DNA from: Ignavibacteriales bacterium
Lineage (GTDB): Bacteria > Bacteroidota > Ignavibacteria > Ignavibacteriales > Ignavibacteriaceae
NCBI GenBank assembly: GCA_012517155.1
Contig: JAAYVN010000093.1
Span: 1-45,431, forward strand
Direction: 5' to 3'
Length of the DNA: 45,431 bases
The stretch's first letter is position 1, and each line of letters opens with the position of its first letter. The position numbers and the translations under genes were made by a program. Positions 16,034 through 19,874 of the stretch are shown in pieces. A model generated the notes under the pieces. It worked only from the letters and a program-made list of their open reading frames with translations. It did no database searches and was not told the DNA's origin.

Positions 16034-17227
16034 CTAGATACCAATCTCCTCAAGATCAGGGACAGAAATACGCAGGGGAGTAGAAACACGTCTTGTAGCT
16101 GCTTTTCCGTTTCCTTTAGTTGATTTTGATAAGTGTTTCCTTTTAGCGGAATCGAATTTCATTATCTCTGTCGACAGTTCTTTTTCTTCTTCTACATTTT
16201 TATAGAGGTAGACATTTTTCTTGTAATTCCGGAGGACAATTTTTTCCTCGTCGAACTCCATGACATAATTAGGAAGGATGGGGATTTTGCCACCGCCACC
16301 AGGAGCATCAATTACAAAGTGAGGAACAGCTAGACCGCTAGTCCATCCTCTAAGATGTTCAATTACTTCAATTCCTTTCTGGATTGAGGTTCTAAAGTGA
16401 TTGGCTCCTTTAGTCTCATCAGCCATATAAATGTAATATGGACGAACTCTTATCTTAAGGAGTTTCTGCATTAGTTCCTTAACAACGGCGGGGTCGTCGT
16501 TAATATTTTTCATCAGAACCATCTGATTACCAACAGGGACGCCGTTATTTGCAAGCATTTCGCAAGCTTTGGTGCTCTCAGGGGTTATCTCCCAGGGATG
16601 ATTAAAGTGAGTGTTAACGTAAACAGGATGATATTTTTTAAGCATATCGCAAAGTTTAGGAGTGATTCTTTGCGGAAGAACGCAGGGCATTTTTGTACCA
16701 AGTCTGATTATTTCGATGTGAGGAATAGATCTTAATCGTTTAAGGATCTTTTCCAGCATAACATCAGTGAGCATTAAGGGGTCGCCACCGGAAAGGATTA
16801 CATCGCGGATTTCAGTGTGAGCCTCCAAATATTTGAAAGCAGACTCAAGACCACGCATAGAAATTTTTTCTGAATTTCCCACTTTACGTTTCCGAGTGCA
16901 GAACCTGCAGTAAAGGCCGCATTGGCTTGTAACTAGAAATAGAGCGCGATCAGGATATCTGTGAGTAATATTAGGAACCGGACTCATTGCATCTTCGTAC
17001 AGGGGATCTTCATCTGCATCGAGATCTTGTAACTCTTTAATATCAGGGACGCACTGCATCCAAATAGGATCGCCCGGATACTTAATAAGACTAAGATAAT
17101 AGGGGTTAATCCTAACCTGAAAAAACTCGATCAGTTTTTCCGCAACGCTTCTGTCTATTGAGAATTTATCAACTAACTGGTCAACGGTATGAATACTGTC
17201 GCGAACCATTTGTTGCCAAAGTTCCAT
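16034..17227 (-). CDS. kamA: Lysine 2,3-aminomutase (KamA-type radical SAM, PLP)
   Basis: Radical-SAM/PLP enzyme expected to convert L-lysine into L-beta-lysine; 397 residues. The [4Fe-4S] motif is Cys103-Cys107-Cys110 ('CGLYCRFC'). PLP-binding Lys314 lies in 'DAPGGGGK'. Arg112, Asp270 ('YMAD') and Asp307 ('VIDAPGG') match the Clostridium residues Arg134, Asp293 and Asp330 that hold lysine's carboxylate and epsilon-amine, so lysine is favoured over glutamate. The zinc-binding cysteines of the clostridial enzyme are absent: the C-terminus is a basic tail and the internal cysteine is replaced in 'NINDDP'. It is the last gene of the ATP-grasp/GNAT operon, nine nt after the GNAT gene. EpmB-like action on EF-P is less likely given the Asp residues and context. 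Confidence 0.9.
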   Translation of the reverse strand: MELWQQMVRDSIHTVDQLVDKFSIDRSVAEKLIEFFQVRINPYYLSLIKYPGDPIWMQCVPDIKELQDLDADEDPLYEDAMSPVPNITHRYPDRALFLVTSQCGLYCRFCTRKRKVGNSEKISMRGLESAFKYLEAHTEIRDVILSGGDPLMLTDVMLEKILKRLRSIPHIEIIRLGTKMPCVLPQRITPKLCDMLKKYHPVYVNTHFNHPWEITPESTKACEMLANNGVPVGNQMVLMKNINDDPAVVKELMQKLLKIRVRPYYIYMADETKGANHFRTSIQKGIEVIEHLRGWTSGLAVPHFVIDAPGGGGKIPILPNYVMEFDEEKIVLRNYKKNVYLYKNVEEEKELSTEIMKFDSAKRKHLSKSTKGNGKAATRRVSTPLRISVPDLEEIGI

Positions 17228-17236
17228 TATATCACC

Positions 17237-17731
17237 TTAAGATTTTGTCAATAAATATTTTCCAAAAACAACCAGAGCTTCACCAAGAGAATAGAAGTCA
17301 TCAATTCTTGCGATCTCATTAAAATCATTTCTGATATAGAACAAACGAGTAGCCTCATAAGTTTCTTTAGAGGAAGTTTCGGCAAGAATCCAACGTCCGT
17401 TTCTATCGCGAACAAATTTTTCGCAATGGTCAAGCAATTTTGTACCTATTCCTTTACCAGCGGATTGGGGATGAACAACAATCCAATACAAATCATAGAC
17501 GGCATCGGTTATAGGACGTTTTCCGGTGCAATGATAGCCGAGGATTTTGTTATCTTCTTCAAAAACGAAAATATGATAGTCGTCCTGATCAGGTTTAGTC
17601 AATACAATATCAATTAGTTCGAGAGCTACATCAACATCCTCTTTTTTGAATGTTTTGATTGCCGTCAGCAGAGAGACCAAATGAGCTCTGTCAGATTCTT
17701 TTATTTGTCGTATCATATAAATGTCGTTCAA
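17237..17731 (-). CDS. GNAT-family N-acetyltransferase
   Basis: Single-domain acyl-CoA N-acyltransferase of 164 residues. Motif A, the pyrophosphate loop, is 'VVHPQSAGKGIGTKLLDHCE' (QxxGxG/A), and 'FYIRNDFNEIARIDDFYS' gives the C-terminal strand and helix. It is shorter than, and not obviously similar to, AblB, the acetyltransferase that pairs with KamA in methanogens to make N-epsilon-acetyl-beta-lysine. It starts inside the upstream ATP-grasp gene, overlapping by 41 nt from ATG 17731 or 26 nt from ATG 17716, and is followed nine nt later by kamA. By context its substrate is an amine on lysine, beta-lysine or their ligation product. Confidence 0.85.
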   Translation of the reverse strand: MNDIYMIRQIKESDRAHLVSLLTAIKTFKKEDVDVALELIDIVLTKPDQDDYHIFVFEEDNKILGYHCTGKRPITDAVYDLYWIVVHPQSAGKGIGTKLLDHCEKFVRDRNGRWILAETSSKETYEATRLFYIRNDFNEIARIDDFYSLGEALVVFGKYLLTKS

Positions 17732-18746
17732 GAGAAAGAGTTATAATTTTTTTTAGCATCATACCATAATCCATACCTAAAGCACAGGCTGCCCTATTAA
17801 AACCGGAATCAGAGGTTATATCCGGATTAGGATTAACTTCAATTACAAAAGGAATTCCATCATGAGATAGTCTGATGTCCACACGAGCGTAATCCCTGCA
17901 ATTAAGAGAATGAAAAGCCTTGATTGCAGTATCCTGTAAGAGGGATGTAGTATTGAGATCTATAATAGCCGGGCAGCAGGGAATAGTGCTTTTATAATAA
18001 ACCGTATCCGCTATCCATTTGCCTTCATATGTGACAATTTTTGGAAGATTGCCAGGCAATGAAGTAAAACAGATTTCAGAAACAGGAAGAGGAGAATTAC
18101 CAAGAATTGCGATATTAAATTCCCGTCCATCAATAAACTCTTCAATTATAATATCCTGTTTATATGTTGAAGTTAAAAAGTCAAGTTGCTGAAGAAGATC
18201 GGGTTTGTTAAAGGAGACAGAGTTTTCGGAAATGCCGATACTGGCATCTTCCTTCGCCAGTTTAGAGATAACCGGAAAGGACAAGTTAAAATTATTAAGA
18301 GGATTTGATTTTTTATATTTATAAACGTAGTAGCCAGGAGTTTTAATTCCATCGGCAATTAAAAATTCTTTAGCTCTAGCTTTGTCCAAGCAGTTATTAA
18401 GAGCAAGAGGTCCATTCCCAGTATAGGGGATGTTTAATAATTCATACAAACCGGTGATGTAAGATTCAAATGAAGAAATTCCTTCGACAGATTCAACAAA
18501 GTTGACAATAACATCAGGTTGAATTTTTCTTAATTTTTCCATAAGAGTAAAGATATCCTTATCCACAGCCAATAATTCAATGCAAGAATAATATGGCTCA
18601 AGTGATTCTTTAATGAGTTCAAGTTCATTAAAGAAACTGCTTTCGGAGAGATCTTTGGGTTGGTTACCGGTCTCTTTTCCACTATACAGAGAATAGAGAG
18701 AGACAGGTGCGTTATAAGCGATTAATATTTTAAGATCTTCTTTCAT
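17691..18746 (-). CDS. D-Ala-D-Ala ligase-like ATP-grasp enzyme (second copy)
   Basis: ATP-grasp carboxylate-amine ligase of 351 residues. 'ILIAYNAP' starts the N-terminal Rossmann-like domain; 'LNIPYTGNGPLALNNCLDKARAKEFL' is the Ddl-like segment, 'IIIEEFIDGREFNIAILG' the ATP-binding part, and 'RVDIRLSHDGIPFVIEVNPNPDI' the Mg-binding end. True cell-wall ligases have NTxPG at that last site; here it is NPNPD, and 'SDSGFNRAA' follows, so a different amine/acid pair is expected. The start overlaps the stop of the first ATP-grasp gene by one nt (TGATG), and its 3' end contains the GNAT start. It probably forms an amide or peptide bond in the same pathway. Confidence 0.87.
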   Translation of the reverse strand: MKEDLKILIAYNAPVSLYSLYSGKETGNQPKDLSESSFFNELELIKESLEPYYSCIELLAVDKDIFTLMEKLRKIQPDVIVNFVESVEGISSFESYITGLYELLNIPYTGNGPLALNNCLDKARAKEFLIADGIKTPGYYVYKYKKSNPLNNFNLSFPVISKLAKEDASIGISENSVSFNKPDLLQQLDFLTSTYKQDIIIEEFIDGREFNIAILGNSPLPVSEICFTSLPGNLPKIVTYEGKWIADTVYYKSTIPCCPAIIDLNTTSLLQDTAIKAFHSLNCRDYARVDIRLSHDGIPFVIEVNPNPDITSDSGFNRAACALGMDYGMMLKKIITLSLERHLYDTTNKRI

Positions 18747-19828
18747 CAGATTGAATATCTTTTCCTTGCAATATTAAGGACTTCATTTATCATAGTGTTA
18801 AAATCCAGTCCTGCGGTTCGAGCAGCTTTTGGAAAACAGGAGTTGTCGCGAGGGTCGGGAAGAATTCCGGGAAGAGGATTGATTTCTATGATATTTGGAA
18901 TATTATTTTTATCCATCCGCATGTCTATTCTACTCCAGTCTCTGCAACGAAGAGTGTGATAAGTTCGAAGAGCGATATCTACAATTTGCTTTTCCAAATC
19001 AGCGGGAATATCAGCGGGACAAGAAAAAATATCGAGTTGGTTTTCGCGAGTGTCAAGAATCCACTTAGCTTCGAAAGAATAAATTGGAGCGACATCACCC
19101 GGCAGTTTTGAAAAGTCGATTTCAATAACCGGGAGAGCATGGGCATCCTGTCCATTTCCCAATATCGCGACAGTAAATTCACGACCATTAAGAAATTCTT
19201 CAACAAGGACGGGTTGATTATAAGCAGTAAGAATTTTTTCCACTCCAATTTTTAATGAGTTAAAATCATTGACAATAGAAGTAGAAAAAATTCCTTTGCC
19301 AGAACCTTCGGCAATTGGTTTAATAATTACAGGGAAATCAAGTGAGAATGATTTCAGATCTTCAAGTGAGTTGAATAACTGAAAGCGAGCGTTCGGGATA
19401 TTGTGATAGGACAAAATTTCTTTTGTACGGGATTTATCGAGAGTTAAAGCGAGGGTTAAAGGATCCGAGCCTGTATAAGGGATATTAAGGAGTTCGAGGA
19501 TTGCAGGTATCTGAGCTTCCCGACTAATTCCAAACAAGCCTTCAGTGATGTTAAACACAATATCGGGAGAAGTATTTTTTATTTTTTCAAAACAGTTACA
19601 ATCAGCTTCAATGGGGGTTACATTATGATTAAGACTTAAAGCGTATTGTACAGCATTAATTGTCTCCATACTATCCCATTCTGCGAAGGTATCAGCAGTA
19701 ATTTCAATATTACCTTTACGAAACAGAGATAACTCTTGGAAGGAACTTGGATTTTCCGGTTTCGCATTATAAAGTAATGCGACGTTTAGCGGATGTGTAT
19801 ATACAGAAGGAATAATTTCCTCAAACAG
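18746..19828 (-). CDS. D-Ala-D-Ala ligase-like ATP-grasp enzyme, non-AUG start
   Basis: First gene of the operon: an ATP-grasp ligase with 'LNIPYTGSDPLTLALTLDKSRTKEIL', 'PVLVEEFLNGREFTVAILG', and 'RIDMRMDKNNIPNIIEINPLPGILPD' for ATP and Mg binding. The first ATG (19669) would give 307 residues and cut off the expected N-terminal strand. The frame stays open upstream and encodes a typical start of the fold, 'LNVALLYNAKPENPSSF' and 'ITADTFAEWDSMETINAVQYAL'. No ATG, GTG or TTG occurs between the in-frame TGA and 19669. A CTG at 19828-19826, 18 nt after a strong -10 box, gives 360 residues, close to the paralogue's 351. ATT codons after a GAGGAA (near 19816) are alternatives. The start choice is inferred; the frame extension is seen. 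Confidence 0.82.
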   Translation of the reverse strand: MFEEIIPSVYTHPLNVALLYNAKPENPSSFQELSLFRKGNIEITADTFAEWDSMETINAVQYALSLNHNVTPIEADCNCFEKIKNTSPDIVFNITEGLFGISREAQIPAILELLNIPYTGSDPLTLALTLDKSRTKEILSYHNIPNARFQLFNSLEDLKSFSLDFPVIIKPIAEGSGKGIFSTSIVNDFNSLKIGVEKILTAYNQPVLVEEFLNGREFTVAILGNGQDAHALPVIEIDFSKLPGDVAPIYSFEAKWILDTRENQLDIFSCPADIPADLEKQIVDIALRTYHTLRCRDWSRIDMRMDKNNIPNIIEINPLPGILPDPRDNSCFPKAARTAGLDFNTMINEVLNIARKRYSI

Positions 19829-19844
19829 AAAAAAATTTTTTATG

Positions 19845-19874
19845 CAAATATAATCTTTAAAAAAATTTTGTCAA
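19845..19874 (-). promoter_or_regulatory. Promoter of the ATP-grasp/GNAT/kamA operon
   Basis: On the minus strand, TTGACA (19874-19869) and TATATT (19852-19847) are separated by 16 nt. The -10 extends to TATATTTG, so it also matches the Bacteroidota TAnnTTTG element with TTG 19 nt ahead. Transcription would begin near 19840, about a dozen nt before the proposed CTG start. Confidence 0.7.

What the first reader, a model, noticed from the sequence alone, without database searches (positions are those of the whole stretch)
19669..19874. Operon's first gene seems to start at a non-AUG codon just behind its promoter
The homologous N-terminus of the ATP-grasp fold extends about 50 residues upstream of the first ATG at 19669, but the open frame contains no ATG, GTG or TTG back to its TGA. 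A CTG at 19828 lies 18 nt after a TTGACA-16-TATATTTG promoter, the same distance at which recG's ATG follows its own TATATTTG (19 nt). ATT codons behind GAGGAA are alternatives. A rare start could throttle the pathway.
Basis: partly seen in the sequence, partly recalled or inferred. Interest (0 to 1): 0.55.

Follow-up and report, generated by a model that had tools for sequence, protein, structure and literature searches.

The report
Operon opened by AUU start codon
The first gene of a small metabolic operon in these bacteria very probably starts at AUU (or AUC/AUA) instead of AUG, a rare weak start best known from the gene for translation factor IF3, and this has been kept across most of a bacterial order.

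Summary
In detail: the frame of ATG 19669 is open up to TGA 19873 with no ATG, GTG or TTG, and the part upstream of 19669 holds the first beta strand and invariant residues.

In the window's order 109 of 115 readable loci (46 of 49 genera) have ATT, ATC or ATA in the same place, usually close behind an AAGGAG-like sequence. 34 of 115 have no canonical start at or before the first strand. In the same loci gene 2 (114 of 115) and kamA (76 of 76) start canonically. infC of the order starts ATC or ATT in 29 of 31 loci looked at. Several more distant families have ATG at the strand.

Best reading: a true AUU/AUC/AUA start that keeps translation low and open to IF3 discrimination, as in infC, sigR, ccpN and cvfC1. 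The start codon is well supported by comparison; initiation and IF3 control are inferred. New member of a known kind, notable for its breadth.

The parts
19845..19874 (-). promoter-like TTGACA (19874-19869), 16-nt spacer, TATATTTG (19852-19845)
   Evidence: sequence; TATATT lies upstream in 111 of 115 loci of the order, in 81 of these with 24-29 nt between the 8-mer's end and column -9 (no chance control was run)
19817..19822 (-). Shine-Dalgarno-like GAGGAA
   Evidence: duplex with the anti-SD tail -6.2 kcal/mol; GGATCACCTCCTTT read in the 16S of a genome of the same family, G032; GGA is the commonest codon at column -12 of the order, 64 of 116
19811..19816 (-). tandem ATT ATT (19816-19814 and 19813-19811), one of which is the proposed start; 19813 has the more usual SD spacing, 19816 lies in the most conserved column
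   Evidence: AUH at this place in 109 of 115 loci, 46 of 49 genera
18746..19813 (-). gene 1, ATP-grasp ligase of the D-Ala-D-Ala ligase fold, 355 residues from ATT 19813
   Evidence: PF07478 121 bits, cut-off 24; AlphaFold2 mean pLDDT 91.3, first strand at residues 10-15
17691..18746 (-). gene 2, second ATP-grasp ligase; its ATG overlaps gene 1's stop by 1 base
17237..17731 (-). gene 3, GNAT acetyltransferase, overlapping gene 2
   Evidence: PF13508 51.2 bits, cut-off 27
16034..17227 (-). gene 4, KamA-family radical SAM protein, lysine 2,3-aminomutase-like
   Evidence: TIGR00238 312.6 bits, cut-off 199.2; PDB 2a5h E 2.8e-120

Best explanation
Translation of gene 1 begins at AUU (19813 more likely than 19816), placed by the Shine-Dalgarno GAGGAA about 30 nt behind the -10 element and read, as in infC, by ordinary initiator tRNA through a mismatched third base, so that the first residue is still formyl-methionine. 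The weak codon keeps initiation low and exposed to discrimination by IF3. Because gene 2 starts on gene 1's stop, the effect probably passes to both ligases. Shown by comparison: the codon's conservation, the SD in front of it, the lack of a conserved other start, normal starts in neighbouring genes. Inferred: initiation itself, the tRNA, IF3 repression, coupling, and why this pathway needs it.
For: AUH at column -9, -8 or -7 in 109 of 115 loci and 46 of 49 genera; column -9 is ATT 81, ATC 11, ATA 5 and never ATG, GTG or TTG in 116. In 108 of 115 the best SD-backed codon upstream of the strand is AUH and in none is it ATG, GTG, TTG, CTG or ACG; aligned spacing 4-5 nt in 79 of 108. 34 of 115 have no canonical codon at or before the first strand. 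26 close pairs: changes upstream even over codon positions (52/50/53), in the gene body mostly at the third (80/55/139). Gene 2 has a canonical start in 114 of 115, kamA in 76 of 76 counted. infC starts ATC (27) or ATT (2) in 31 loci looked at, by eye. AUH/ATG/other needs 7 changes on a 177-protein tree. A start at 19669 would drop strand 1 and invariant L13, D41, A44, E45, D47.
Against: No translation data. The SD+AUH scan is not specific by itself: in the two wrong frames 24 and 60 of 115 loci also pass. The third-position excess in the 8-codon extension alone is weak (21 of 43 against 53 of 155 upstream, p = 0.058). TTG stands at the first-strand column in 53 of 116 loci and ATG in 2. Six of 115 loci do not fit: four have ATG four codons before the strand, two are unclear; L119, counted as AUH, has that ATG too. 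In the window GAGGAA abuts ATT 19816, so the codon in the most conserved column is the worse spaced one; my scan did not separate the two, the choice of 19813 is my reading.
Confidence: 0.8

Rival explanations
1. Variant of the best explanation (odds given that AUU is the start): the weak start is only a constant brake that sets a low level, and neither IF3 level nor growth state regulates it.
For: The AUU of S. aureus cvfC1 gave about 10% of AUG output with no effect of the medium (PMC13009471, passages).
Against: None from here: drift of the third base among T, C and A with no AUG at the column fits a brake and a regulator alike.
Confidence: 0.4
2. Start at the Leu codon of the first strand, read as UUG where it is TTG.
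For: TTG at that column in 53 of 116 loci and ATG in 2; several outgroup families have ATG exactly there.
Against: The codon is another Leu or Phe codon in 61 of 116, CTA in the window; the SD lies some 30 nt upstream; the codons before it show a recurrent protein pattern in the order (ILSS/ISSF).
Confidence: 0.05
3. CTG 19828 is the start.
For: 16 nt after TATATTTG, against 17 nt for recG's ATG.
Against: CTG in 1 of 115 loci at that column; no SD pairing; 19 of 116 loci have TAA in that column.
Confidence: 0.02
4. Start in another frame followed by frameshifting.
For: 100 of 115 loci have some other-frame ATG, GTG or TTG near the site whose frame runs past it; the window has a TTG of this kind, 12 codons long.
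Against: The common ones lie downstream inside coding triplets (positions +7 in 79, +4 in 42, -8 in 25 loci); no upstream position recurs in more than 7 of 115.
Confidence: 0.02
5. Start at ATG 19669, or a sequencing error hides an ATG.
For: It is the first canonical codon of the frame in the window.
Against: Upstream residues include an invariant motif and strand 1; the AUH pattern recurs in 109 of 115 loci.
Confidence: 0.01

Closest known systems
infC (IF3): ATT in E. coli, ATC in Streptomyces (PMC5472188, passages), AUA in S. aureus (PMC13009471, passages)
   Same: AUH start behind an SD; in this order infC itself starts ATC or ATT in 29 of 31 loci looked at
   Different: infC encodes the discriminating factor and regulates itself; here the gene is a ligase of a metabolic operon
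S. aureus cvfC1 (AUU) and ccpN (AUA), PMC13009471 (passages)
   Same: conserved AUH start with strong SD; cvfC1 is also first in its operon; measured at about 10% of AUG, up to 30% for ccpN in rich medium
   Different: other genes and phylum; start and initiation were mapped experimentally there; conservation reported among Staphylococci (cvfC1) and between S. aureus and B. subtilis (ccpN), here 46 genera of one order
Streptomyces sigR (GTC), PMC5472188 (abstract and passages)
   Same: noncanonical start of the first gene of a coupled pair
   Different: GTC, sigma factor; repression by IF3 shown there, untested here
E. coli pcnB (AUU)
   Same: AUU limits expression of a gene other than infC
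   Different: seen only as a title in a reference list; details recalled

Membership tests
AUH-initiated bacterial genes (infC-like) | AUU/AUC/AUA in the start position, conserved | tested here: met
   109 of 115 loci, 46 of 49 genera
AUH-initiated bacterial genes (infC-like) | SD at working distance | tested here: met
   108 of 115, aligned spacing 4-5 nt in 79 of these; the wrong-frame control is lax (24 and 60 of 115 pass)
AUH-initiated bacterial genes (infC-like) | no usable canonical start | tested here: met
   34 of 115 have none at or before the first strand, the window among them; 81 have some, mostly scattered or at the strand's Leu codon
AUH-initiated bacterial genes (infC-like) | initiation at the codon and repression by IF3 | not testable with these tools
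   needs ribosome profiling, peptides, reporters
D-Ala-D-Ala ligase fold ATP-grasp | Dala_Dala_lig_C domain over cut-off | tested here: met
   PF07478 121 and 97.9 bits for genes 1 and 2, cut-off 24
D-alanine--D-alanine ligase proper | NCBIfam cut-off | tested here: not met
   gene 1: NF002378 194.9 of 243, TIGR01205 157.7 of 245.65; gene 2 lower
KamA family radical SAM | TIGR00238 cut-off | tested here: met
   312.6, cut-off 199.2
lysine 2,3-aminomutase equivalog AblA | TIGR03820 cut-off | tested here: not met
   469.9 of 525.4
EF-P beta-lysylation (EpmA/EpmB) | EpmB score; EpmA present; Lys at the EF-P tip | tested here: not met
   TIGR03821 232.1 of 369.3; best genX match 242.2 of 286.9, a 507-residue frame that I read as lysyl-tRNA synthetase; EF-P tip HVNPGNWRAF (place of Lys34 recalled)

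The most novel reading that the evidence does not exclude
The AUH start makes the operon an IF3-sensing unit: with infC itself on AUC, the ratio of IF3 to ribosomes sets how much of this aminomutase/ligase pathway is made, so a metabolic pathway is wired to the state of translation initiation across most of an order.
Probability: 0.35. Interest if true: 0.7.

Novelty: new member of a known kind. Interest (0 to 1): 0.5.

Why it matters
Very few noncanonical bacterial starts have been characterised (so PMC5472188). Here one is kept in 46 of 49 genera for an ordinary-looking biosynthetic operon, which makes it a natural test of what such starts are for. Gene callers that allow only ATG, GTG and TTG would misplace or truncate this gene in many of these genomes. 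The four loci that use an ATG instead give a built-in comparison.

Tried and rejected
CTG 19828, ATG 19669, the Leu codon of the first strand, and other-frame starts with frameshifting were tested and judged unlikely (see rivals). RNA structure: no Rfam match in the window; folding around the start is about as strong as in mononucleotide shuffles (mean z -0.16 over 115 loci, 18% below -1.5). Feedback through beta-lysylated EF-P was considered because of the KamA-type enzyme and found no support. The window genome's 16S is incomplete and 4 of 5 further genomes gave no 16S match, so the anti-SD was read in one genome, G032.

Literature: searches returned no paper in the listings that describes this case; only named Ignavibacteria, and its one hit is a review on L-asparaginase (listing only). 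One search listed beta-lysine papers, none opened. Absence from this library is weak evidence of novelty.

Rows dropped: of 123 gene places in the order, 6 with a cut 5' end were not fetched; L180 failed the anchor pattern (by eye it has Ile at the same place); L155 lies at a contig end (dropped from then on). That leaves 116 and 115 later. L164 was flagged as an odd anchor but kept, except in the tree. Six loci (L124, L142, L150, L151, L163, L167) were classed by hand. The printout was cut in the middle; counts come. The close pairs were drawn only from loci with AUH at -9, so the lack of first- and second-base changes there is by construction and is not used as evidence. kamA was found in 77 of 115 stretches and counted in 76. 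The gene 2 and kamA test accepts the nearest canonical codon within 8 codons of the expected place, which is lenient. The class search had 237 of 391 genomes with a match, the order's included; 60 places outside the order were fetched and 8 came as loci; one search examined 72 loci, 4 of them repeats of the order, one without an anchor.

Full report
What was claimed and what is there. The finding says that gene 1 of a minus-strand operon lacks a normal start upstream of ATG 19669 although its homology runs further up. Listing the codons confirms it: none of the 67 codons between 19669 and TGA 19873 is ATG, GTG or TTG. The operon runs gene 1 (ATP-grasp ligase), gene 2 (second ATP-grasp ligase), a GNAT acetyltransferase and a KamA-family radical SAM protein.

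Where the protein must begin. Relatives were found in public genomes (69 loci) and in 121 of 164 genomes of the window's order. In Kryptonia (L010, L011) and several other families an ATG sits where the window has CTA 19789, the Leu of LNVALLYN. An AlphaFold2 model of the window protein (alignment of 33, mean pLDDT 91.3, pTM 0.90) puts the first strand at residues 10-15, counted from ATT 19813; residues 1-3 are below pLDDT 50. ATG 19669 is residue 49, downstream of invariant L13, D41, A44, E45 and D47. It cannot well be the start of a complete protein of this family.

The conserved AUH column. 116 loci of the order could be anchored on that strand. Nine codons before it stands ATT in 81, ATC in 11 and ATA in 5, never ATG, GTG or TTG. 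Twelve more have AUH one or two codons later, so 109 of 115 loci and 46 of 49 genera carry it. The A and T of that codon are 94% and 90% conserved over 115 loci; the T just before it is 81%, the T of its third base 79%, the next codon 52-62%. GGA is the commonest codon three places upstream (64 of 116), and 19 of 116 have TAA directly before that column, as in TAA GGA GAA AAT ATT of L087. The best SD-supported codon is AUH in 108 of 115 loci and a canonical one in none; aligned spacing is 4-5 nt in 79 of 108. The same scan in the wrong frames passes in 24 and 60 of 115, so the scan alone proves little; the column conservation is the strong evidence.

Other starts. 34 of 115 loci have no canonical codon at or before the first strand. 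In 30 the first one stands at the strand itself (TTG in 29, ATG in L138), a codon that is another Leu or Phe codon in 61 of 116. In 18 it lies between AUH and the strand, and in 33 at or upstream of column -9, scattered, several of them inside the TATATTTG element. Four loci have an ATG four codons before the strand and no AUH (L124, L150, L151, L163); a relative of the same genus as three of them, L119, has both that ATG and an ATA behind AAGGA. L142 and L167 are unclear.

Where coding begins. In 26 independent close pairs, changes upstream are even over the three codon positions (52, 50, 53), in the gene body they favour the third (80, 55, 139; p = 0.0006 against upstream), and in the eight-codon extension 21 of 43 are third-position, borderline against upstream (p = 0.058). 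The AUH codon itself changed twice, both times at its third base, but the pairs were chosen to have AUH, so this is no test.

Only this gene. In the same loci gene 2 has a canonical start in 114 of 115 (109 ATG, 4 TTG, 1 GTG), and kamA an ATG in 76 of 76 counted. Gene 2's start overlaps gene 1's stop by 4 bases in 105 of 114; in the window by 1 base. infC was looked at in 31 of 59 genomes with a match: by eye it starts ATC in 27 and ATT in 2 (in L277 ATA ATC stand side by side); in 2 loci of one genus no AUH is in the 14 codons printed, and a TTG stands further up. The window genome's own infC has ATC directly behind a TAA.

The window's own codon. The window has tandem ATT, 19816 in the main column and 19813 one codon on. 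GAGGAA abuts 19816, so 19813 has the more usual spacing and I prefer it; the scan did not separate them. Either gives nearly the same protein.

Wider pattern. On a FastTree tree of 177 proteins the states AUH, ATG and other need 7 changes; the states of class-level rows were set by hand, one per family. Family f13, outside the order, also has AUH (6 of 6 loci), in four of them with a TTG at the strand. Other families have ATG, or ACG, TTG or CTG near the site.

Mechanism and known cases. The nearest precedents are infC and sigR (PMC5472188, abstract and passages) and cvfC1 and ccpN of S. aureus (PMC13009471, passages), where such starts cut output to about 10%, up to 30% for ccpN in rich medium; sigR is shown there to be repressed by IF3. 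The present gene has the same anatomy. That IF3 governs it is inference. The pathway's product is unknown: KamA scores below the lysine 2,3-aminomutase cut-off and the ligases below the D-Ala-D-Ala ligase cut-offs, and a link to EF-P found no support.

Verdict. Odds are as first written; the constant-brake rival is now marked as conditional on the AUU start.

Noticed in passing
L210, L218-L220, L223 (f24) and L227, L234, L253, L258, L264 (f20): All ten have ACG AGT, seven of them behind GAGG at about 5 nt, where the order has AUH; L242 (f20) has ATT in that place. A TTG follows three codons on in all, so ACG or TTG as start is undecided.
   Followed up: partly
f19 loci L211-L217, L221, L222, L224, L226, L228, L230, L231, L240: In 15 of 15 a mini-frame TTG-GTA/ATA-NNN-NNN-TGA ends directly before the gene's ATG, perhaps a relic of an older TTG start or a coupling device.
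   Followed up: no
L204 and L265-L294: infC starts ATC or ATT in 29 of 31 loci looked at; the two exceptions are one genus (G075, G076), which also had no gene 1 match at E 1e-70.
   Followed up: partly
L119, L124, L150, L151 (genus g59): An ATG four codons before the first strand; L119 still carries ATA behind AAGGA, so the step from AUH to ATG may be visible here.
   Followed up: partly
L297, EF-P of the window's genome: The EF-P tip loop reads HVNPGNWRAF, with Asn where E. coli has the modified Lys34 (recalled).
   Followed up: no
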